Shown: in pieces, positions 40,097-49,940 of the stretch | Layout: each line of letters opens with the position of its first letter | Position numbering within the stretch: the stretch's first letter is position 1 | NCBI GenBank assembly: GCA_017480195.1 | Contig: JAFVBE010000017.1 | Span: 1-64,000 of the forward strand | Source of the DNA: Lachnospiraceae bacterium | GTDB lineage: Bacteria > Bacillota > Clostridia > Lachnospirales > Lachnospiraceae | Reading direction: 5' to 3' | Length of the DNA stretch: 64,000 nt | The notes under the pieces: generated by a model | Told to the model about the DNA's origin: nothing | Seen by the model: the letters and a program-made list of their open reading frames with translations, nothing else | The model's database searches: none | Position numbers and translations under genes: made by a program

Positions 40097-40498
40097 ATGG
40101 CAGATAATACAATGAAGGTTAGAATTTTATCACCTGAGAAGGTTTTCTATGAGGGAGAGGTTTCCTTCATAGAGTTTAATACTACAGCAGGTGTAAGAGG
40201 TATTTATCCAAAGCATGTGCCTACCACTATGGTTCTTCAGCCGGGTGTACTTAAGCTGGTTGAGGCTGATGGTGAGAAGCAGGCAGCTCTTCATACGGGC
40301 TTCGTTGAGGTTCTTCCTGATAAGATTACCATGCTTGCAGAGAGTGTGGAATGGCCGGAGGAGATCGATGAGAAGCGTGCCGAGGAGGCTAAGATTCGTG
40401 CGGAGCGTCGTATAAGTGACGATACGCAGGATCAGAACAGGGCTGAGCTTGCACTTAAGCGTGCGGTGGTAAGATTACAGCTTTGCAAGGTTAAATAG
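40097..40498 (+). CDS. atpC: ATP synthase F1 subunit epsilon
   Basis: A 133-residue subunit with the N-terminal beta-sandwich (MKVRILSPEKVFYEGEVSFIEF, GVRGIYPKHVPTTMVLQPG) and a C-terminal helical hairpin. ATG 40097 has AAGGAGGAC immediately upstream. Last gene of the ATP synthase operon; a long structured repeat begins 20 bases after its stop. Confidence 0.94.
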   Translation: MADNTMKVRILSPEKVFYEGEVSFIEFNTTAGVRGIYPKHVPTTMVLQPGVLKLVEADGEKQAALHTGFVEVLPDKITMLAESVEWPEEIDEKRAEEAKIRAERRISDDTQDQNRAELALKRAVVRLQLCKVK

Positions 40499-40518
40499 TA
40501 AATTCAATATTTATCGCA

Positions 40519-40800
40519 TTAAGGGTGTGGTGAATTTGGCTCTTAGCGTCGAAGACATATAGGATACTGAGGACACGCTTTCGCTCGGTAAAAAACGCAA
40601 GGGCTACTAAGAAAAATTCAAAGACAGATGATATGTATAATCAGATTACTATGTAATCAATTATCCGCCTCATCTGTCTTTTTATTTTTCAAGTACCCGC
40701 GTTTTTTAACGGTCCTCCTGTACCCTATATGTCTTCTTGCTAATGAGCCAAATTCACCACACCAGCTCAAACATCACAAAATTGTGATGTTTGAGCTGTA
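40519..40800. repeat. Structured self-complementary element, family 1 copy A
   Basis: A 282 bp intergenic element, the same length as and gaplessly alignable to 61289-61570. It folds on itself. 40524-40542 pairs with 40745-40763 (19 perfect bp). GACATATAGG pairs with CCTATATGTC, and GAGGAC (40569) with GTCCTC (40712). AAAAAACGC pairs with GCGTTTTTT. AAAGACAGATGA (about 40620) pairs with TCATCTGTCTTT, enclosing a GATTAC/GTAATC hairpin. It ends in a 16 bp stem palindrome at 40764-40797. The end hairpin may terminate the ATP synthase transcript. The sequence has no open frame with a ribosome binding site. Confidence 0.8.
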
Positions 40801-40841: not shown

Positions 40842-40878
40842 GTTTTATAAGTTACAATGAAGTTATTAGGGAGATATA

Positions 40879-41316
40879 ATGGTTAGAGAGATATGACAAG
40901 ATGAATTAAACAGTTTGTTAGAGCTTTATTTACATTTGCATGAAAGCTCAATACCGGATATGACAGAGCATTTAAAAGCTGCTTGGAATACGATTATTAA
41001 TGATGAAAAACATCATATTATAGTTAAGGTTGTTGATGATATGATTGTTTCCTCCTGTGTATGTGTTATTATTCCGAATCTAACCAGAAATGTAAGACCA
41101 TATGCTTTTATTGAGAATGTTGTTACACATATTGATTATCGTGGAAACGGGTATGCGACAGAGTGTCTTAATTATGCAAGAGAGATAGCAAGACAGAATA
41201 ATTGCTATAAAATGATGCTGCTTACAGGCTCAAAGGAAGAAGCTACACTTAATTTTTATGAAAATGCAGGATATAACAGTTCTGATAAAACAGCTTTTAT
41301 TCAGTGGCTTGATTAA
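40879..41316 (+). pseudogene. GNAT acetyltransferase interrupted by an early TGA stop
   Basis: AGGGAG and ATG 40879 start a frame reading MVREI, then TGA at 40894-40896, then QDELNSLLELYLHLHESS and a complete GNAT domain to 41316. The reading frame is the same on both sides, and the residue expected at the stop is Arg or Lys, so CGA to TGA is the simplest change. The acetyl-CoA motif (VVTHIDYRGNGYATECLNYA) and the C-terminal NFYENAGYN are intact. Translation could restart at TTG 40915, but there is no ribosome binding site there. It is either a recent pseudogene, an allele with a sequencing error, or a readthrough case. It lies just before the type III toxin-antitoxin locus. Confidence 0.7.
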
Positions 41317-41339
41317 TTGTACGAAAAATCAAAATTATA

Positions 41340-41367
41340 TTTACAAATATGATAAATTGTATATAAT
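41340..41367 (+). promoter_or_regulatory. Promoter of the antitoxin RNA
   Basis: TTTACA (41340-41345), 16 bp, TATAAT (41362-41367) is a near-consensus promoter placed about 30 bases before the first antitoxin repeat. A small AAATCT/AGATTT hairpin (41377-41392) lies at the start of the transcript. Confidence 0.6.
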
Positions 41368-41394
41368 ATAATTAAGAAATCTTTTTAGATTTTT

Positions 41395-41469
41395 ACCTTT
41401 CACAATGTAGGAAAAACATTGTATTATGACACAAAAACCTTTCGCAATGTAGGACACAAAACATTGCAG
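41395..41469 (+). ncRNA. Type III antitoxin RNA, two 42-nt pseudoknot repeats
   Basis: ACCTTTC starts two tandem units at 41395 and 41437, a 42 base period. In unit 1, ACAATGT (41402-41408) pairs with ACATTGT (41416-41422). In unit 2, GCAATGT (41444-41450) pairs with ACATTGC (41461-41467): the first base pair has changed from A-T to G-C on both sides. In each unit the CCT before the stem can pair with AGG in the loop, giving an H-type pseudoknot, the fold known for ToxI, CptI and TenpI antitoxins. A terminator and then the toxin gene follow, which is the defining order of type III systems. Confidence 0.78.
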
Positions 41470-41499
41470 GCCCTATATCTTGACATATAGGGCTTTTGT
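41470..41499 (+). terminator. Terminator between antitoxin RNA and toxin gene
   Basis: GCCCTATAT (41470-41478) pairs with ATATAGGGC (41485-41493), loop CTTGAC, followed by TTTTGT. In type III systems a leaky terminator at this place makes antitoxin RNA exceed toxin mRNA. The toxin ribosome binding site AGGAG begins 4 bases later. Confidence 0.85.
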
Positions 41500-41512
41500 A
41501 TTAGGAGAAATT

Positions 41513-42526
41513 ATGATTGAGCATGGAATGTATTTTGGAAAAAATAGCTTTTATAAATTAATTAGAGATAATGGAGGTCAATGGAACGACATCAAAGAAA
41601 GACCTATAGTTTGTCTTGTTAAATCTGTTGAATGTAGTAATTTATATTGGGCGATACCTGTTGGAAATTACGAACATAGATCAATTGAGGCAAAACAACG
41701 AATTCAAACATATATGAGCTATAATTCAGAAGACATTAGGTCTTGTTTTTATCATATTGGTAATACTAATGAAAAATCAATTTTTTTTATTAGCGATGTA
41801 GTTCCAATTACAGATAAGTATATAGATAGGGAATATCTTAATAAAACCGGTAAAATACATATTATTAAAAATAAAATTCTTCTTTCTGATTTAGAATATA
41901 AATTAGGGAGAATATTAGCATTTGAAAATAGTAATACTAATTATTTCAGACAGCATATAACAGATATAAAGCAATTTTTATTGAATGAATTAAAAGAAAA
42001 TGAGAAATCAAATAACTGTTCTATAAGAAAATGGAAGCTTGAAGATAAAGAAGAATTGGCAAAGAATCTTAATAATAAAAAGGTTCTTGATAACCTAAGG
42101 GATGGTTTGCCTTATCCATATACTGAGAAAGATGCAGAAGAATATATTAAGGCGATGCTTTCGGCGGATGAAGATGATACTTTTGCTTTTGCAATAACTG
42201 TTGATGATGTTGTTATAGGAAGTATAGGTGTATTCCGTCGTGATAATATCCATTTTCGGACGGCTGAAATGGGCTACTATATTGGAGAAGATTATTGGGG
42301 AAAAGGATATATGACCTATGCAGTAAAGCAAGTCTGTAAATATGTATTTGATAACACAGATATTATCAGAATATTTGCTGAACCATTTGCTTATAATATT
42401 GCGTCTTGTCGTGTATTAGAAAAATCGGGTTTTAAGTATGAAGGCACATTACGAAGCGGTGCTTTTAAGAGTGGTAAGGTAGTTGATATGAAAATGTATG
42501 CTCTATTAAAAGTAATTGAAAATTAA
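41513..42526 (+). CDS. Type III toxin (ToxN/CptN/TenpN-like) fused to GNAT acetyltransferase
   Basis: A 337-residue two-domain protein. Residues 1-160 resemble type III toxin RNases: KERPIVCLVKSVECSNLYWAIPVGNYEHR (about 28-56), RSCFYHIGNTNEKSIFFISDVVPIT and the C-terminal LGRILAFENSNTNYFRQHITDIKQFLL. Residues 169-337 are a RimJ/RimL-like GNAT with the acetyl-CoA motif MGYYIGEDYWGKGYMTYAV and AYNIASCRVLEKSGFKYEG. A short linker (KENEKSNN) joins them in one frame. ATG 41513 has AGGAG 6 bases before it; earlier starts lie inside the terminator. Stand-alone toxins of this class are ~150-180 residues. The toxin domain should cut RNA and be held by the upstream RNA; what the GNAT acetylates is unknown. 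Confidence 0.78.
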   Translation: MIEHGMYFGKNSFYKLIRDNGGQWNDIKERPIVCLVKSVECSNLYWAIPVGNYEHRSIEAKQRIQTYMSYNSEDIRSCFYHIGNTNEKSIFFISDVVPITDKYIDREYLNKTGKIHIIKNKILLSDLEYKLGRILAFENSNTNYFRQHITDIKQFLLNELKENEKSNNCSIRKWKLEDKEELAKNLNNKKVLDNLRDGLPYPYTEKDAEEYIKAMLSADEDDTFAFAITVDDVVIGSIGVFRRDNIHFRTAEMGYYIGEDYWGKGYMTYAVKQVCKYVFDNTDIIRIFAEPFAYNIASCRVLEKSGFKYEGTLRSGAFKSGKVVDMKMYALLKVIEN

Positions 42527-42535
42527 TTGAATCTA

Positions 42536-42595
42536 AAAAAGAAACGAGCAGCCCGCTTTAGTAATTAAACTGTACGGTAAAACCCATTTCTTTTT
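42536..42595. terminator. Possible bidirectional terminator
   Basis: AAAAAGAAA (42536-42544) faces TTTCTTTTT (42587-42595) between the convergent toxin fusion and the degenerate EAL gene. The stem is all A-T except one pair, with a long loop, so it is weak evidence. Confidence 0.35.
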
Positions 42596-42640
42596 AAGAA
42601 TTTACTAAATATTAAAAATTAGTTAAGCGATATTTTTATT

Positions 42641-44305
42641 CTATGAATAATACTTCTCTACCATCTCATCGAATGTAAGTGGCTCGGAGTAGTATTTGCC
42701 CTGCATAGTGGTTACAGGGAACTGTCTTACGATGTCGCGGAGTTCCTTAGATTTGACACCTTTGATGTTGATATGCTCGACACAGGTTGATGCCATCTTG
42801 GTAAGGTGCTCTAAGATGTCTCTGTCACGGCCTTCGCTCTCGATGCCGTTCGTGAACTGCTTATCAAGGCAGACTGCATCGACATGTGTTTTCTTAAGGA
42901 AGGATATCGAATCCGTACCGCTTCCGAAACCATCAAGAATGACCAGTATGTTATTCTTGTGTAATCTCTCAATCGTAGCTTTCATATGCTCAGGCTCGAT
43001 TAATCGGCAGTCACTGGAGAACTTCAGGCTTAAAAGATTTGCCGGGAAGCCGCTTTCTTCGATATAATACAGCAGGTTATCTATAAAGTAATCTGTCTCA
43101 AGCTGTGAGCTGTAGACATTTATACATAGTAAGTAATTAGTATTCTTTTCTAAGAATTTTACACCATCATTAAGGCTTTGCTTTAAAACATAATCACTTA
43201 ATTCCTCAAAGACGAAGTCTCTCTCTAATATAGGCAGGAAATCTTCTTCCCTGACAATACCATATTTTTCGTTTTCCCATACGACCTTAGCTTCTGCACC
43301 GTTTACATTCTCTGTATCGGCAGCTATGACAGGCTCATATTCTATATGGAAGCCCTCACAGTCATTAAGTATTGAATCACGAATATCATTGATAAGCCGG
43401 ATAGAGGCAGACTCATCATAATTAATGCTTCCGTTGAAGTCAACCAGCTCTCCATGAGCGTGCTGCTTTGATTCCTCATATGCATAGACGAGACAGGAAT
43501 ATATGGCTTCAGCACTCGAATCGGCATTGTTTGTAGATACCATACTTCCGTTAGCTATCAGGATATTGCGGATGCCGTTTATCTCGATGCCTCGCTGTAA
43601 TCTATAGCGTATCATATCATATATTGCTGACAACTCTTCTCGTGTGAGGGTTTCTGACAGAATTGCGAAGTTCGCATCATTTAATCGGTATATGTTAGCA
43701 CGCTCCCCAATAATTTCCTTAAGCAGCCAAGATATCTCCTGCAGGAGACGGTTGGAATATGTATAGCCGTGTATACGGGTTATCTCGGAGAATCTGCTTA
43801 TACCGACATCCAAAGAGATGGTCTGTGTTCCCGCATTTATGAAATTATTCAAATCTCTAAGATAGGCGTTTTTGTTAGGAAGAATAGTGACCGGATCGAT
43901 ATTCTGAGTCAGTCCTTCATTGATAAGTGCACCACCTATAAGACTTGGGTTTCCATCTGAATCTCTCAATACGGCTCCCAAAGCACGGAAGGTTGCATAA
44001 TCTCCTGTATTAAGACGCACGCGATATGTGATGTCATAGGTATGAGTCTTTCCTTCAATCAGAGGTGTCATAACGTCCATATAACGCTTTCTGTCCTCAG
44101 GATGAAGATAATCATTCCAGTCGTAAGCGCCATTTGGTATATATTCTCCCGGAAGACCTAAAAGCTCTACTGCATTGGCAGAGTAGCGTGTGAAGCCTCC
44201 GGCAACATGCATAAGCGATACTATACCACCATCTGTAAGCATTGTAAAAGCGTCAAATACATCGTCCAGCATTTGTTTGTGTTTCGGGTCCATATTGATT
44301 TCCAT
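42641..44305 (-). CDS. PAS-GGDEF-EAL protein with degenerate catalytic motifs
   Basis: A 554-residue protein. A PAS domain (about 20-125) is followed by a GGDEF-like domain in which the GGDEF position reads LNDANF, and an EAL-like domain in which the EAL position reads GAEAKVVW and the DDFG(T/S)G motif reads LDGFGSG. The key metal-binding and catalytic residues are missing from both, so neither synthesis nor hydrolysis of c-di-GMP is expected. It may bind c-di-GMP or act as a protein-interaction output. AGGAGG lies 9 bases before the ATG. It lies 27 bases downstream of the hybrid kinase and is surely co-transcribed with it. Confidence 0.82.
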   Translation of the reverse strand: MEINMDPKHKQMLDDVFDAFTMLTDGGIVSLMHVAGGFTRYSANAVELLGLPGEYIPNGAYDWNDYLHPEDRKRYMDVMTPLIEGKTHTYDITYRVRLNTGDYATFRALGAVLRDSDGNPSLIGGALINEGLTQNIDPVTILPNKNAYLRDLNNFINAGTQTISLDVGISRFSEITRIHGYTYSNRLLQEISWLLKEIIGERANIYRLNDANFAILSETLTREELSAIYDMIRYRLQRGIEINGIRNILIANGSMVSTNNADSSAEAIYSCLVYAYEESKQHAHGELVDFNGSINYDESASIRLINDIRDSILNDCEGFHIEYEPVIAADTENVNGAEAKVVWENEKYGIVREEDFLPILERDFVFEELSDYVLKQSLNDGVKFLEKNTNYLLCINVYSSQLETDYFIDNLLYYIEESGFPANLLSLKFSSDCRLIEPEHMKATIERLHKNNILVILDGFGSGTDSISFLKKTHVDAVCLDKQFTNGIESEGRDRDILEHLTKMASTCVEHINIKGVKSKELRDIVRQFPVTTMQGKYYSEPLTFDEMVEKYYS

Positions 44306-44332
44306 TATTTTATCCTCCTTGAGATTAGTAGA

Positions 44333-47300
44333 TTATTCCTTTATAAGACTTGAAAGTGTCTGTATCAGTACATCAAGCTCTACCGGCTTGGCAAGGTGCG
44401 CATTCATTCCTGCTTGCAGTGAGTGCTGTACATCCTCGTCAAAGGCGTTTGCGGTAAGTGCAATGATTGGGATTTTCTTTGCATCAGGATGGTCGAGTGC
44501 CCTGATTGTCTTGGTAGCAGTAAGGCCATCCATAACAGGCATTCGCATATCCATAAGTATGGCATCATAGTAGCCCGCCGGATGTTCCTTGAATAAATCA
44601 ACCGTTACCTGACCATTCTCCCCGTGGTCAACCTTCATATCCATCATTTCAAGAAGCTCTATCATTATCTCTGCATTTATTTCGACATCCTCTGCAAGTA
44701 ATATACGTCTTCCTGTTAAATCTATCTCTTTTTCATTCTCTTTCTCTAAGGTCTTGTTCGCCATAGCCTGCTGGAAGGTTGATAATACATTTGCAGCAAA
44801 CAGCGGCTTAGGCATAAAGCTGTCTACACCTGCTTTTAAAGCCTCTTCCTCTATGTCATCCCAGTTATAAGCGGTAAGTACAATGACTGCCGAATCATGA
44901 CCTATAATTTCTCGAATGTCCTTTGTAACCTCTATTCCGTCTTTTTCCGGCATCTTCCAGTCTACAAATATGAGATTGTAAATCTCATGTCTTGCAGCCT
45001 TAAGATGTATGGTGTCTATTGCCTCCTGACCGCCCAGACAGGTATCAGCATATATTCCTATCTCCTCAAGAACTATCTTCGCATGTTCTAAGGCTATAGG
45101 GTCGTCGTCGATTACCATAACCTTAAGATCGCTTGGATTGATGTCGTTCATCTCAAGGTGCCCATGCTTGCTGTTGTGCAGGGTTACATTTACGGTAAAG
45201 GTTGAGCCGACACCCTTCTCGCTTTCTACGCTTATGTTACCATTCATTAACTCGACGATGTTTTTCGTTATCGCCATACCAAGACCTGTACTGCCGTACT
45301 TGTTGGTGTTGGAATCATCCTCCTGACTAAATGGCTCGAATATCTTGCTCAGGTATGATTTCTCCATACCTATACCGGTATCCTTCATAATAAATTTAAG
45401 TGTAGTTTGCTCGTCGAATTCTGCAACACGCTCTACTATGAAGCTTACTGTGCCCGGTGAAGGAGTGAACTTAACGGCATTGCCTAAAATATTTATGAGA
45501 ACCTGCTTTAGCTTCATATCATCGCCGATATAGTATTCGTCCACTTTGCCGATTATCTTACATTCATAGGTTAAGCCCTTGTCCTGACACTGTGAATTAA
45601 TCATTGTATTAATCTGCTCGAGCATATTGCTGAATGAGAAATCCTCATTTTTAAGATTGAGTCGTCCGCTTTCTATACGGCTCATATCAAGTATATCATT
45701 GATAAGACCAAGCAGATGTCTTGCGCTGTTGCCTATTTTTTCAAGGTGCTCCCTTATACGAGGAGATAAATCAGGTTCCTTTAATGCTATATTATTAAGA
45801 CCGATTATAGCATTCATAGGAGTACGGATTTCGTGACTCATAGATGACAGGAATGCTGTCTTTGCCACATTTGCCTGATTGGCAGCTTCTAAGGCAGCGT
45901 TTAGCTGCTCGTTATATGCAATCTGCTCTCTCTGTATATCCGTCGTATCGCTCTTAAGAAGGATATAGAATTTGGCTTCTGCATCAATTCGGTAGAAGTC
46001 AAACTGCTTGTAATATGTCTCGTTATCCATTGTGATACCGATATTTACAACATAGGATTCCTTTTCTGCAAGCTCTTTTTCTATAGTCTCAAGAGAAAGC
46101 GCCTTAATCATAGCTTCCTTCTGTTCGTCTGTACCTTCAAGAACAGGATATACCTGATTGGACAGGTATTGTTGATAGAAACCGTTGCGTGAGGTAGGGA
46201 ATATGCTTCCGTATTTTATATTTGCAGCATCACCGATTGTCACACCATATTGTCCGTTCACGAGGTATGCAACCATATCAAACTGCTGTGCAAGTATTTT
46301 GTTTGCCAAGGTCTGCTGAACCTTCTCGCTATTGAAATCCTGCTCGGTTATAAATGCAATCATATCTCCCGTAAGCGGCTGACGCGTAATGGCTGCGGAA
46401 ATATTAACGAAGCATACATGTCCGTCTTCTCTTATGGAATACAATATCTGTGAGACATTTGTTTTACCTGAAGAATAACCGTTTATAAGTGTATCCCTGT
46501 CAAATAGCTGCTTGAACTGTGCCTGCTCGGATTGTATTGGGAAATGCCCTGCTCTTTGCAGCATAGTATCCGTATATGAATAAGACATGGTGTCTGTCTT
46601 GAAAAGGTCCTTACCCTTTACCTCCTCCACATTATCTCGTGTAAGATTGACACGGAAGAGTGCAAGAGTTCTGTCATTCTCCTGATAGAAGTTATCACCC
46701 ATGCTTGAATATACACTTTTTAGTCTGTCTTCGTACTGCTTCATCGCAGTTACATCAGTGTATGTACAATATACATAATGCTCGTTGAAATCATCTATAA
46801 ATGCATAATGTACATTGCACCATATACGATTGCCCTTTGCGGTTATTTTCTGTATGTTGAGTGAGGATTTTCCGTCATAGGTTGTTCTGTGTTTTAACAT
46901 GCTTCGTACAAGCGGTCTGTCCTCAGGACTGGTGGTTTTATAAAAGCCCATTCCGTCCATAATTTTCATGGCTTCAGCTATTGAACACTCCATCATGGCT
47001 GCAAAGTCATCAGATACGAAGACGGTTTCGAACTGGTTGTTATCACTCTTCTTGAATAATACGGCATTATTCTTCATCTGTTGTACATTCGACAGGAAAT
47101 GTGCCTTGGTATCATGTGAGGCATATCCTGTTATATTTGTCAGATAAAAACCTGCATAAGGCGCAGGGAGATTCGGTATCGGTTCAAAGAAAAGATGCAG
47201 GTTGACCATTGGCATATATGTAACGAAGGAATATGGTTCTTCTGTCACAAATTTCTCCATCATATCAAGGGAGTAATCGTCCATCAGTGTACTTTCCTTT

Positions 47301-47488
47301 AAAAGCGCACCGATATAGTCATCATTGCCGTATATTGTATGCCAATCATTTGCAAATATTTCACTGGCATATACGACACGAAAATCCCTGATGCTTCCAT
47401 CGTCATTAAAAACCGGCTCATATATAAAAGAACTTATATCATGCTTTTCGTATTGTGAAGTGTCAAAATCAAGCGATGGTTTCGACAT
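44333..47488 (-). CDS. Large hybrid sensor histidine kinase with two receivers
   Basis: A 1051-residue cytoplasmic protein. About 540 residues of PAS-like sensory regions (for example AVLFKKSDNNQFETVFVSDDFAAMM and ITAKGNRIWCNVHYAFID) lead into HisKA (SSMSHEIRTPMNAIIGLNN), HATPase (ILGNAVKFTPSPGTV, KDTGIGM, YGSTGLGMAI), and two receiver domains with VMVIDDDPIA...LIFVDWKMPEKDG and ILLAEDVEINAEI...AILMDMRMPVMDG. No membrane helix is seen. AGGAGGAGCATCTT precedes the ATG. No DNA-binding output; probably signals to the degenerate GGDEF-EAL protein downstream or to c-di-GMP enzymes elsewhere. Confidence 0.92.
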   Translation of the reverse strand: MSKPSLDFDTSQYEKHDISSFIYEPVFNDDGSIRDFRVVYASEIFANDWHTIYGNDDYIGALLKESTLMDDYSLDMMEKFVTEEPYSFVTYMPMVNLHLFFEPIPNLPAPYAGFYLTNITGYASHDTKAHFLSNVQQMKNNAVLFKKSDNNQFETVFVSDDFAAMMECSIAEAMKIMDGMGFYKTTSPEDRPLVRSMLKHRTTYDGKSSLNIQKITAKGNRIWCNVHYAFIDDFNEHYVYCTYTDVTAMKQYEDRLKSVYSSMGDNFYQENDRTLALFRVNLTRDNVEEVKGKDLFKTDTMSYSYTDTMLQRAGHFPIQSEQAQFKQLFDRDTLINGYSSGKTNVSQILYSIREDGHVCFVNISAAITRQPLTGDMIAFITEQDFNSEKVQQTLANKILAQQFDMVAYLVNGQYGVTIGDAANIKYGSIFPTSRNGFYQQYLSNQVYPVLEGTDEQKEAMIKALSLETIEKELAEKESYVVNIGITMDNETYYKQFDFYRIDAEAKFYILLKSDTTDIQREQIAYNEQLNAALEAANQANVAKTAFLSSMSHEIRTPMNAIIGLNNIALKEPDLSPRIREHLEKIGNSARHLLGLINDILDMSRIESGRLNLKNEDFSFSNMLEQINTMINSQCQDKGLTYECKIIGKVDEYYIGDDMKLKQVLINILGNAVKFTPSPGTVSFIVERVAEFDEQTTLKFIMKDTGIGMEKSYLSKIFEPFSQEDDSNTNKYGSTGLGMAITKNIVELMNGNISVESEKGVGSTFTVNVTLHNSKHGHLEMNDINPSDLKVMVIDDDPIALEHAKIVLEEIGIYADTCLGGQEAIDTIHLKAARHEIYNLIFVDWKMPEKDGIEVTKDIREIIGHDSAVIVLTAYNWDDIEEEALKAGVDSFMPKPLFAANVLSTFQQAMANKTLEKENEKEIDLTGRRILLAEDVEINAEIMIELLEMMDMKVDHGENGQVTVDLFKEHPAGYYDAILMDMRMPVMDGLTATKTIRALDHPDAKKIPIIALTANAFDEDVQHSLQAGMNAHLAKPVELDVLIQTLSSLIKE

Positions 47489-47526
47489 AAGATGCTCCTC
47501 CTTTTTGTGTAAAATCAGATATTTTA

Positions 47527-47555
47527 ATTATAAGATAGTTGATACGGTTTTTCAA
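47527..47555 (-). promoter_or_regulatory. Promoter of the hybrid kinase operon
   Basis: On the minus strand TTGAAA (47550-47555), 17 bp, TATAAT (47527-47532) is a near-consensus promoter 38 bases before the kinase start. A CAAGAA/TTCTTG dyad (47553-47566) overlaps the -35 box and could be an operator. Confidence 0.6.
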
Positions 47556-47669
47556 GAAAATTCTTGTATTTATAGCATTTATAGATATATGAAAAATATA
47601 TATGTAGTCTTTTTTTAAAAGATGTGATAAACTTAGTAATCATATTATCAAAGGGGGAAAATAAAGTAT

Positions 47670-49940
47670 ATGAATTCCAAGAAGGTAATTACAATTATCT
47701 GCTCTATGTTGGCTGTAGCAGTAATCATAGCAGCCATTGTTCTTGTGATAAGCTCTAACAAAAAGGATGAAAAGCTTACAGCGGGAACTGATGCTGATAC
47801 AACGACTGAGGTTGTGAAGGATACTGAAGAGATAACAGCCGATCCGGGGGCGGTCGCACAGATAGATGCATCGTATGTTAGTTTTATAAGAAGACCGACG
47901 CTTCTTGCAGGTGCAAAAGGAGATTATTCCATAACTGCAAGTGTTCCTGCTTATACGATTGAACCGGATTTTTCTAATGTATATAACAGTGACAAGATTG
48001 CATATTATTCTGATGAAGAAAAGCTGCAGCTTGCAAGTAACGGATTTCTGGTTACAGAGGGTTATGATATGGAGTTTTTCGAAGTGTATGAGACGAATCG
48101 TTATGATTATACGGCGAATTTCATAACCGTCGATTCCATGATGCATACCTATCATCTGTATTTTGCGTATCTATTAAGAAATACTGAGAGGAATTATCTT
48201 TCACAGGATTTAGCTAACCTTTCTAATGAAATGATGAGTGAGGCAAAGTCACAATATGATACACTTAAGGGGACAGAATGGGAGGATGCGGCATATCTTA
48301 ATCTTGCGTTTTTTGCTGTAGGCAATAAGCTGCTTAATCCTGATGCGGAAGTACCAAGCGAGGTAAGTGATATAGTGGCTCAGGAGGTTGACCTTGTAAA
48401 TGCTGCAGGGGGTATTTCATCTTCGCCGCTATTCCAGCCATATAGTGAAGAGCCTGTTGAAGAAGATTATTCACAATATAAGCCGAGAGGATATTATGAG
48501 GGTGAAGAGGCTTTGGAAAGATATTTCAGAGCTATGATGTGGTATGGCAGACGCAACTTCGCACAGGCAAATGAAACCTATAACAGGGCTTCAATTCTTA
48601 TGACGATAGCACTTGATAATGGTGCTTTAAGTGACTGGGAGAAGATATATACTGTAACCTCATTCTTTGCAGGTGCATCTGATGACAGCGGTTATTATGA
48701 ATATCGTCCGATTATTGATGCTGCATATGGTGAAGGTGTTACGGTTGATATGCTCGTAGGAAATACAGAGGGTTATAACAACTTTAATGCACTTGTCACT
48801 GAGCTTGACCCGCCACAGATAAATTCCGTACCGGTATATGCGAGTGATACTGATGAAGAGGTTGCCGAGAAGATTATAGGCTATAGATTTATGGGACAGA
48901 GGTTCTCGATAGATGAGGCAATATTTACGCAGTTAGTATACAGAAAGGTTGAGGAGAATTCACAGGGAGGCTACAGAATGCTTCCTGATGCACTTGATGT
49001 TCCGGCTGCACTTGGCTCTGATACGGCACTTAATATTCTTTCAGCTCAGGGTGCAACCGACTATAAGAATTACAGTGAGAATATGGACAAGTTAAGACTT
49101 GATATAGCAAATGCACCGGAGGATACATGGGATGCAAGTCTTTATTCAGGCTGGATAAATACCTTAAGACCTGTGCTTGAGCCAAAGGGCGAGGGCTATC
49201 CTATGTTTATGCAGAATGAGGAATGGAATAAGAAAAATCTTGTTACATTCTTAGGAAGTTATACAGAGCTTAAGCATGATACGGTTCTTTATTCCAAGCA
49301 GATGATAGCAGAGATGGGCGGAGCAGATATTCCTGTATTGGATGACAGAGGTTATGTCGAGCCTGAGGTTGAGGTTTACAGAAGACTCAGCGCACTTGTA
49401 AAATCTACATCTGACGGCTTGGAAGGATATGGATATCTCGACGCAGATAGCAAGGCAGACCTTGCACTTTTGGCTGAGCTTTCAGACCAGCTTCAGACTA
49501 TATCCGAAAAAGAGCTAAGAAACGAGCTTCCTACCGATGATGAATTCGAGCTGATAAGAACTTTCGGAGGACAGATAGAGCATTTCTGGCAGGAGACTAA
49601 CAAGGATAAGGCAGATAATGAATACTTTACTTCACAGGAATTCCCTGCGGCTGTTGTAGTTGATGTTGCTACGGATCCAAATGGCTCATGTCTTGAGGTA
49701 GGAACAGGTCAATGTAACAGAATTTATGTTATTGTTCCTGTGGACGGACAGCTTAAGGTGGCAGTGGGCGCAACATACTCCTTCTATGAGTTTGAGCAGC
49801 CGATAAGCAACAGGCTTACTGATACACAGTGGAGAATTATGCTTGGCATAGAGCTTGACGAAAGCGGTTCATATTCAAAGGATGAGAGCATAAAACCGCC
49901 TGCATGGACCGAGAGCTTTACAAAATACTATAATTATTAG
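47670..49940 (+). CDS. DUF3160-type exported protein
   Basis: A 756-residue protein with an N-terminal membrane or signal helix (VITIICSMLAVAVIIAAIVLVI) followed by a Thr/Glu linker and a large extracytoplasmic region. Segments such as NGFLVTEGYDMEFFEVYETNRYDYTANFITVDSMMHTYHLYFAYLLR, GYRFMGQRFSIDEAIFTQLVY and the C-terminal YSFYEFEQPISNRLTDTQWRIML are those of DUF3160 proteins, whose role is unknown. AAAGGGGGAAAA precedes the ATG. Only 3 bases separate it from the next gene, which probably encodes a partner. Confidence 0.8.
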   Translation: MNSKKVITIICSMLAVAVIIAAIVLVISSNKKDEKLTAGTDADTTTEVVKDTEEITADPGAVAQIDASYVSFIRRPTLLAGAKGDYSITASVPAYTIEPDFSNVYNSDKIAYYSDEEKLQLASNGFLVTEGYDMEFFEVYETNRYDYTANFITVDSMMHTYHLYFAYLLRNTERNYLSQDLANLSNEMMSEAKSQYDTLKGTEWEDAAYLNLAFFAVGNKLLNPDAEVPSEVSDIVAQEVDLVNAAGGISSSPLFQPYSEEPVEEDYSQYKPRGYYEGEEALERYFRAMMWYGRRNFAQANETYNRASILMTIALDNGALSDWEKIYTVTSFFAGASDDSGYYEYRPIIDAAYGEGVTVDMLVGNTEGYNNFNALVTELDPPQINSVPVYASDTDEEVAEKIIGYRFMGQRFSIDEAIFTQLVYRKVEENSQGGYRMLPDALDVPAALGSDTALNILSAQGATDYKNYSENMDKLRLDIANAPEDTWDASLYSGWINTLRPVLEPKGEGYPMFMQNEEWNKKNLVTFLGSYTELKHDTVLYSKQMIAEMGGADIPVLDDRGYVEPEVEVYRRLSALVKSTSDGLEGYGYLDADSKADLALLAELSDQLQTISEKELRNELPTDDEFELIRTFGGQIEHFWQETNKDKADNEYFTSQEFPAAVVVDVATDPNGSCLEVGTGQCNRIYVIVPVDGQLKVAVGATYSFYEFEQPISNRLTDTQWRIMLGIELDESGSYSKDESIKPPAWTESFTKYYNY

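What the first reader, a model, noticed from the sequence alone, without database searches (positions are those of the whole stretch)
41340..42526. Type III toxin-antitoxin locus whose toxin is fused to a GNAT acetyltransferase
Seen: near-consensus promoter, two 42-base tandem units each able to form an H-type pseudoknot (CCT with AGG across a 7 bp stem), an A-T to G-C compensatory change between units, an intrinsic terminator, then at once a ribosome binding site and a 337-codon frame. The order is the defining architecture of type III systems; two ~42 base repeats fit the CptIN class. Residues 1-160 look like a ToxN/CptN/TenpN RNase; residues 169-337 are a full RimJ/RimL-like GNAT with an intact acetyl-CoA motif. 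Stand-alone toxins lack this second domain, and I know of no described type III toxin-acetyltransferase fusion. It could add a second toxic activity (as with tRNA-acetylating GNAT toxins), self-modify the toxin, or be a chance read-through fusion.
Basis: partly seen in the sequence, partly recalled or inferred. Interest (0 to 1): 0.92.

Follow-up and report, generated by a model that had tools for sequence, protein, structure and literature searches.

The report
RNA-controlled toxin fused to acetyltransferase
A bacterium carries a small RNA-controlled self-poisoning module whose toxin protein runs straight into a second, intact-looking acetyltransferase enzyme; two other bacteria carry similar toxins joined to different partners, which suggests that such toxins can pick up passengers.

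Summary
At 41340-42526 lie a promoter-like site, two 42-base repeats able to form H-type pseudoknots, a terminator, a ribosome-binding site and one 337-codon frame. The RNA passes the cut-off of Rfam RF02920, listed as 'Cis-reg'; all 13 distinct RF02920 loci I met precede a toxin of the same clade, so that family looks like a type III antitoxin. Residues 1-166 are a CptN-related toxin, 76% identical to a stand-alone toxin that stops at the junction. They miss NCBIfam's CptIN cut-off and lack CptN's two active-site serines, so I call this a sister group of CptN. Residues 167-337 are a complete RimJ/RimL-like GNAT, 69-78% identical to GNATs not fused to a toxin. No second toxin-GNAT fusion was found, but among 77 distinct toxin frames held, two more carry long C-terminal additions (a P-loop kinase; at least 512 residues of a longer protein). 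Best reading: a type III module whose toxin gained a passenger enzyme by end-to-end fusion, in a variable island beside atpC. A second toxic role for the GNAT is possible but less likely. No reads were available to confirm the junction, and no function was tested.

The parts
41340..41367 (+). promoter-like site TTTACA-16-TATAAT
   Evidence: 11 of 12 consensus matches; consensus only
41391..41467 (+). antitoxin RNA, Rfam RF02920
   Evidence: 60 bits, gathering 52.1, E 5.4e-7
41396..41422 (+). pseudoknot of repeat unit 1
   Evidence: CCT/AGG helix and 7-bp stem; covariation over 20 units
41438..41467 (+). pseudoknot of repeat unit 2
   Evidence: CCT/AGG helix and 7-bp stem; covariation over 20 units
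41468..41495 (+). intrinsic terminator between antitoxin and toxin
   Evidence: 11-pair stem and T-rich tail; stem in the predicted fold
41503..41507 (+). ribosome-binding site AGGAG
   Evidence: read from the sequence
41513..42010 (+). toxin domain, residues 1-166, CptN-related
   Evidence: NCBIfam CptIN 57.8 bits, below cut-off 90; PDB 4rmo E 8.9e-10 with the A3 profile; hhalign 98.7% to 13 classical CptN
42011..42526 (+). GNAT domain, residues 167-337, and stop codon
   Evidence: PF13302 98.4 bits, cut-off 25.4; keeps 76 of 78 residues invariant in 13 relatives
40843..48033 (.). variable island between atpC and the next conserved gene, which holds the locus
   Evidence: absent from the matching stretch of G015 and G022; alignment to G013 ends at 40842, with a phage integrase beyond

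Best explanation
[quoted passage not shown] Inferred working: the promoter makes mostly repeat RNA that stops at the terminator, and a little read-through makes the fusion protein. The toxin domain cuts the repeat RNA into ~42-base pseudoknots, which lock it in a closed RNA-protein ring. When the RNA supply fails, the freed toxin domain cuts cellular RNA and halts growth. The GNAT rides on the toxin's C-terminus, keeps its ancestral acetyltransferase activity and is not the poison. It has no ATG or GTG start near the junction, so it is probably made only as part of the toxin (a weak TTG start is not excluded), and the addiction module helps to keep it. Shown by sequence: the architecture, the covarying pseudoknots, the homology of both domains, the junction, the residues kept in both domains and two other C-terminal fusions of related toxins. 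Inferred: RNA cleavage, toxicity, neutralisation, GNAT activity and the addiction benefit.
For: RNA: 100% of 162 cells pair (9 pairs, 18 distinct of 20 units, 7 loci), 28 cells change on both sides, covariation score 0.539 against at most 0.115 when slid. RF02920 precedes the toxin in 13 of 13 distinct loci met with it. Of 19 viral loci found by two repeat patterns, 7 hold toxin and RF02920 and 12 hold neither. Toxin homology. Junction: L005 stops where the window has residue 167. GNAT keeps 76 of 78 residues invariant in 13 relatives; each of those, left out in turn, misses 0-2. Toxin domain keeps 29 of 29 residues invariant in nine other rows. C-terminal additions recur: 3 of 77 distinct toxin frames held have 171, 190 and at least 512 residues after the toxin, the other 74 at most 55. 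The GNAT family tends to sit tight behind other genes: in frame with other GNATs in L006 and L013, within about 45 bases behind a ParE-like toxin in L009 and an AbiEii toxin in L015.
Against: Nothing here shows expression, RNA cleavage, toxicity or acetylation. The window's toxin group lacks the two active-site serines of CptN (Gly51, Asn52 in the window), so RNase action rests on homology. Only one copy of the toxin-GNAT fusion was found. The genome is a 63-contig assembly, 84.7% complete with 5.5% contamination. Of the 20 distinct toxins nearest the window's, 13 follow RF02920, 5 follow other repeats seen by eye (L155, L157, L222, L223, L224), and 2 show no repeats just upstream: L156/L207, where another frame ends a few bases before it, and L153/L204, whose 5' end abuts a transposase.
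Confidence: 0.6

Rival explanations
1. Bifunctional toxin: the GNAT adds a second poison, for instance acetylating charged tRNA, and the same RNA holds both activities in check.
For: GNAT toxins exist in type II systems (recalled). The domain looks catalytically intact. Fusion guarantees equal dose.
Against: Fifteen relatives at 69-78% identity occur without a fused toxin. Its NCBIfam matches include RimL, AAC(6') and spermidine acetyltransferases and no GNAT named as a toxin among 19 families. Its neighbours are the toxin domain itself and a convergent EAL gene; frames under 60 aa were not looked at.
Confidence: 0.12
2. Frame error or decay: the fusion is a one-off assembly or sequencing error, or a recent neutral stop loss with no function.
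For: Single copy; a draft assembly; a small length change at the junction would put the two parts in different frames; no reads are held. Unfused relatives mostly have an ATG where the fusion has residue 167.
Against: No ATG or GTG start for the GNAT near the junction: in-frame TTG at residues 157, 182 and 199, ATG only at 215. Both domains keep their invariant residues. Two other type III toxins also have long C-terminal additions.
Confidence: 0.18
3. Self-regulation: the GNAT acetylates lysines of the toxin domain or of the toxin-RNA complex and tunes release of the toxin by acetyl-CoA level.
For: Physical linkage; RimJ/RimL-like GNATs modify proteins (recalled); the toxin is lysine-rich.
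Against: No direct evidence. Most toxins of the group have no such domain, and other partners are a kinase and an unrelated long protein.
Confidence: 0.06
4. RF02920 is a cis-regulatory element of the downstream gene, as Rfam lists it, not an antitoxin.
For: Rfam type 'Cis-reg'.
Against: Repeats, terminator and a CptN-related downstream gene are the order that defines type III (PMC5086642 section 4), and the repeats form covarying pseudoknots. All 13 distinct RF02920 loci met precede this toxin group.
Confidence: 0.03

Closest known systems
CptIN type III toxin-antitoxin systems (CptIN of Eubacterium rectale, PDB 4RMO)
   Same: Order of parts; two tandem repeats (45 bases there, 42 here) forming an H-type pseudoknot; homologous toxin (PMC4627078 passages and section 11).
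   Different: 57.8 bits against the CptIN cut-off of 90; Ser51-Ser52 replaced by Gly-Asn; separate branch in the tree; RNA matches RF02920; C-terminal GNAT.
Rfam RF02920 Fusobacteriales-1 RNA
   Same: Window RNA scores above its gathering cut-off.
   Different: Listed as cis-regulatory; the window has two units where the six other loci examined unit by unit have three; read here as an antitoxin array.
Stand-alone toxins L005 and L105 (C. difficile phage pCD1602_4)
   Same: 76% and 59% identical toxins behind RF02920.
   Different: No second domain; L005 stops at the junction.
RimJ/RimL-like GNATs not fused to a toxin (L006-L016, L056-L059; Lachnospiraceae and other Clostridia or Firmicutes records)
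   Same: 69-78% identical; L017 58%.
   Different: Not fused to a toxin; start codon at the junction in those read; L006 and L013 are in frame with other GNATs.
Toxin-kinase fusion L157/L202 (G1325) and toxin-long-protein fusion L214 (G1385)
   Same: CptN-related toxin at the N-terminus, repeats and terminator upstream (by eye), C-terminal addition.
   Different: Partner is a P-loop kinase (NF004861, 141.6 bits, cut-off 203) or a long protein with a sub-cut-off DUF6674 match; toxin 38% identical to the window's (L157) or nearer classical CptN (L214).
Type II GNAT toxins (TacT, AtaT; recalled)
   Same: GNAT fold.
   Different: Their antitoxin is a protein (recalled); no GNAT toxin family among the NCBIfam matches here.

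Membership tests
Type III toxin-antitoxin system | tandem nucleotide repeats upstream of the toxin | tested here: met
   two units 42 bases apart; RF02920 60 bits
Type III toxin-antitoxin system | repeat RNA forms a pseudoknot | tested here: met
   100% of cells paired, score 0.539 against 0.115 at most when slid; sequence evidence only
Type III toxin-antitoxin system | Rho-independent terminator between repeats and toxin | tested here: met
   41468-41495
[quoted passage not shown]
   4rmo E 8.9e-10; hhalign 98.7%, E 4e-16 to 13 classical CptN
[quoted passage not shown] RNA neutralises the toxin | not testable with these tools
   needs an experiment
CptIN family as NCBI defines it (NF047359) | score of 90 bits or more | tested here: not met
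   57.8 bits for the toxin domain, 55.3 for the whole protein
CptIN family as NCBI defines it (NF047359) | active-site Ser-Ser-Arg of CptN (S51, S52, R53 of 4RMO) | tested here: not met
   Gly51 and Asn52; Arg56 probably matches the Arg (alignment; triad from PMC4627078 passages; numbering by my own count)
Pfam toxin families | match to a Pfam toxin model | tested here: not met
   no toxin family for 7 members at E 0.1
GNAT acetyltransferase (PF13302) | score above the gathering cut-off | tested here: met
   98.4 bits, cut-off 25.4
GNAT acetyltransferase (PF13302) | conserved residues kept, acetyl-CoA motif included | tested here: met
   76 of 78 invariant residues kept; YWGKGYMT stretch present (motif recalled)
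Type II GNAT toxin (TacT or AtaT type) | adjacent protein antitoxin | tested here: not met
   neighbours are the toxin domain and a convergent EAL gene; frames of 60 aa or more listed, shorter ones not looked at, none scanned for antitoxin motifs
RF02920 | score above gathering cut-off | tested here: met
   60 bits, cut-off 52.1

The most novel reading that the evidence does not exclude
Type III toxins serve as a fusion platform: the C-terminus accepts enzymes, and the antitoxin RNA then controls both the RNase and the attached enzyme. The window would be an RNA-controlled acetyltransferase, with a kinase and a long protein as parallel cases. Loss of the RNA under phage attack or stress would switch on RNA cutting and acetylation together.
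Probability: 0.22. Interest if true: 0.85.

Novelty: new variant of a known kind. Interest (0 to 1): 0.62.

Why it matters
In the papers seen (PMC4627078, PMC5086642, parts only) type III toxins are small endoribonucleases held by RNA. Domain-sized C-terminal additions in three separate loci say that the toxin-RNA ring may carry an extra enzyme, which gives a direct test of how the complex is built and of whether antitoxin RNA can gate a second activity. The work also proposes an identity for an Rfam family listed as cis-regulatory (RF02920) and marks out a CptN sister group with a changed active site, met in bacterial genomes of the same phylum and in phage and viral records.

Tried and rejected
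Considered and rejected: that the 338-residue frame at L102 is another fusion (its extra residues lie before the toxin, not after it). That the upstream GNAT (40915-41316) pairs with the fused one in relatives: in the loci then held it had one weak match, 27%, not beside a relative of the fused GNAT that I noted. The EAL gene as a synteny anchor: not conserved in place; atpC was used. dN/dS: dS saturated in 8 of 13 pairs; in the other 5, dN 0.18-0.23 against dS 1.8-2.8, mostly time before the fusion. Whole-protein searches of viral contigs found no relative, and of plasmids and phages no match covering 80%. PADLOC gave no match for the window protein.

Papers: searches (open-licence PubMed Central only; one search listed 20 of 39) showed no paper, by title and start of abstract, on a type III toxin fused to an acetyltransferase or kinase; this is not proof of absence. 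Seen: PMC4627078 (passages, section 11), PMC5086642 (outline, sections 4 and 17), PMC5512222, PMC3482391 and PMC12804078 (passages), PMC10511110 (terms not found in the text); otherwise listings. The paper that I recall as the source of RF02920 is not held.

Full report
What is there. The sequence at 41340-42526 holds a promoter-like site, two 42-base units, a terminator, AGGAG and an ATG frame of 337 codons. The RNA with its terminator folds better than each of 200 shuffles, z -4.1, and matches Rfam RF02920 at 60 bits with a cut-off of 52.1.

The RNA. Related toxins came from genomes (L005, L107, L117), a phage record (L105) and viral contigs (L114, L115). With the window these give 20 repeat units, two in the window and three in each of the others. 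Each has a 3-bp 5' helix, a 3-base gap and a 7-bp stem (for L107 unit 1 the script printed a chance alternative, the CCT/AGG pair is in the printed letters). On alignment A2 six of the seven stem pairs and the three 5' pairs were counted: 100% of 162 cells pair and 28 cells change on both sides; the covariation score is 0.539, sliding the partners gives at most 0.115, and no shuffle of 500 reaches it. Two coarser measures are weaker: 24 and 12 of 500 shuffles reach the number of pairs with double changes and of further pair types. L105 and L114 are near copies, so the units are not all independent.

RF02920 looks like a type III antitoxin. It is listed as 'Cis-reg'. I met 13 RF02920 loci with distinct toxins: window, L005, L105, L107, L114 (=L141), L115 (=L134), L117 (53.5 bits, borderline), L145, L147 (=L151), L148, L150, L203 (=L152), L205 (=L154). 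All 13 have the toxin downstream. Most were found through the toxin, so two less biased looks matter. An RF02920 search of 391 genomes of the class, with capped candidates, found 2, the window and L107, both before a toxin. Of 19 viral loci found by repeat patterns alone, 7 hold toxin and RNA and 12 hold neither. Of the 20 distinct toxins that fit profile A6 best, 13 follow RF02920, 5 follow other repeats that I see by eye (L155, L157, L222, L223, L224; no RF02920), and 2 show none just upstream: L156/L207, with another frame ending a few bases before, and L153/L204, which abuts a transposase.

The toxin domain. All 7 members of alignment A3 match NCBIfam CptIN; the window scores 57.8 bits with a cut-off of 90 (the others' bit scores were not printed). 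The A3 profile finds PDB 4RMO at 8.9e-10, and profile-profile comparison with 13 classical CptN gives 98.7%. A tree of 20 rows (14 near the window, 6 of the 13 classical ones) splits the two sets at 100/100. CptN of E. rectale uses Ser-Ser-Arg (PMC4627078 passages). The window has Gly51-Asn52, and the 7 members of A3 share Gly51, His55-Arg56 and His81; five more sequences (L203, L204, L205, L145, L150) also show Gly51 and His-Arg. The L155-L157 group keeps one or both serines. So the change is a trait of the window's group and not decay. The window keeps 29 of 29 residues invariant in nine other rows; row L117 was cut short in that script, so later columns were not counted.

The GNAT domain. 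PF13302 at 98.4 bits. Twelve GNAT relatives came from the genome collection (L006-L017) and four at 69-73% from the 36 other genomes of the genus (L056-L059). In one comparison 15 of them are 69-78% identical and L017 is 58%. In 13 that my script parsed (L012 left out as a copy of L011, L017 as partial; L056 and the phage-record L106 not matched by the pattern; L006 and L013 are in frame with another GNAT), 78 columns are invariant and the fusion keeps 76; the others, left out in turn, miss 0-2. Start codons of relatives fall at the junction, L017 apart. The fusion has no ATG or GTG there; in-frame starts are TTG at residues 157, 182 and 199 and ATG at 215.

The junction. The last two residues of L005 (Lys-Ser) line up with residues 165-166 after a one-residue gap, and its stop falls where the window has residue 167. 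Both partners are essentially whole, joined without a linker.

Is the fusion unique? Whole protein: no other full match in 60 other genomes, in the 84,980-species collection by six peptide patterns, which finds close relatives only, in viral contigs, plasmids or phages. CptIN model: 67 of 397 genomes of the family match, and only the window has a long frame with the toxin in front. A search of 344 genomes of the order (26 with a match) gave two more long frames. L157/L202: toxin 38% identical to the window's, then a P-loop kinase (PF13238 37.8 bits, cut-off 29.4; NF004861 141.6 bits, cut-off 203), behind three repeats and a terminator seen by eye. Six units of L157 and L155 support a pseudoknot: 88.9% of cells pair, score 0.333 against at most 0.119 when slid; helix 1 pairs in 75% because two units are out of register, and the count of further pair types is no better than shuffled, 244 of 500. 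The unfused kin L206 and L207 end at the same place. L214: a toxin nearer classical CptN, frame 957 residues, 671 held, DUF6674 match below cut-off, repeats and terminator by eye. Further searches added none: 5 of 398, 6 of 38 and 13 of 245 genomes matched, with no other frame over 229 residues listed. Among 77 distinct toxin frames in the loci held (20 nearer A6, 57 nearer classical CptN), the stretch after the toxin is 171, 190 and at least 512 residues in these three and at most 55 in the other 74; a frame cut by a contig or locus end would count as short. In the tree the window groups with L005 and L203 (90/100, not starred) and L202 with L206 and L207 (97/93, starred), so the fusions look like separate events.

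Setting. The genome has 63 contigs, 84.7% complete, 5.5% contaminated. In G015 and G022 about 400-420 bases separate the matches of window 40489-40508 and 48034; in G013, the closest by atpC (97%), the alignment ends at 40842 and a phage integrase lies beyond. So the 7-kb stretch with the locus looks like a variable island; it also holds EAL and histidine-kinase genes.

How the fusion may have arisen. Relatives of this GNAT often sit close behind other genes: a ParE-like toxin in L009 and an AbiEii toxin in L015, both within about 45 bases, another GNAT in L059, and GNAT-GNAT frames in L006 and L013. These come from 13 loci parsed of 14; eight neighbour proteins, chosen by me, were scanned. 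A gene that lands close behind others could fuse by stop loss now and then; this is inference. A toxin of the group has a close follower too: in L117 it lies between an N6-methylase gene and a specificity frame that opens 3 bases after it.

Working model and limits. The best reading is a type III module with an intact-looking passenger enzyme. Function, RNA processing, toxicity and acetylation were not tested. The main risk is the lack of a second copy or reads for this junction.

Noticed in passing
window 41391-41467 and 12 other loci: Rfam RF02920 (Fusobacteriales-1, typed Cis-reg) precedes a CptN-related toxin in all 13 distinct loci met, so it is probably a type III antitoxin family.
   Followed up: yes
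L157:1495-2559 / L202 (G1325:C40): Type III toxin with a C-terminal P-loop kinase and its own pseudoknot repeats.
   Followed up: partly
L214 (G1385:C319): CptN-like toxin at the front of a 957-residue frame, with repeats and terminator upstream by eye; C-terminal part weakly like DUF6674.
   Followed up: partly
L117:43-3372 (G859): Type III module sits between an N6-methylase gene and a type I specificity frame that opens 3 bases after the toxin.
   Followed up: partly
L009:2316-3540 and L015:2106-3501: Relatives of the fused GNAT lie within about 45 bases behind a ParE-like toxin and behind an AbiEii toxin.
   Followed up: partly
L006 (401-aa frame) and L013 (327-aa frame): Relatives of the fused GNAT are themselves in frame with other GNATs.
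   Followed up: no
window 40879-41316: A second GNAT gene just upstream; read from the ATG at 40879 it has an in-frame TGA at 40894, and is open from a TTG at 40915.
   Followed up: no
window 40843-48033: Variable island beside atpC; the closest relative by atpC has a phage integrase there.
   Followed up: partly
window 40524-40798: Short stretches downstream of atpC (40524-40574, 40712-40763, 40764-40798) match the same region of G013 also in inverted orientation.
   Followed up: no
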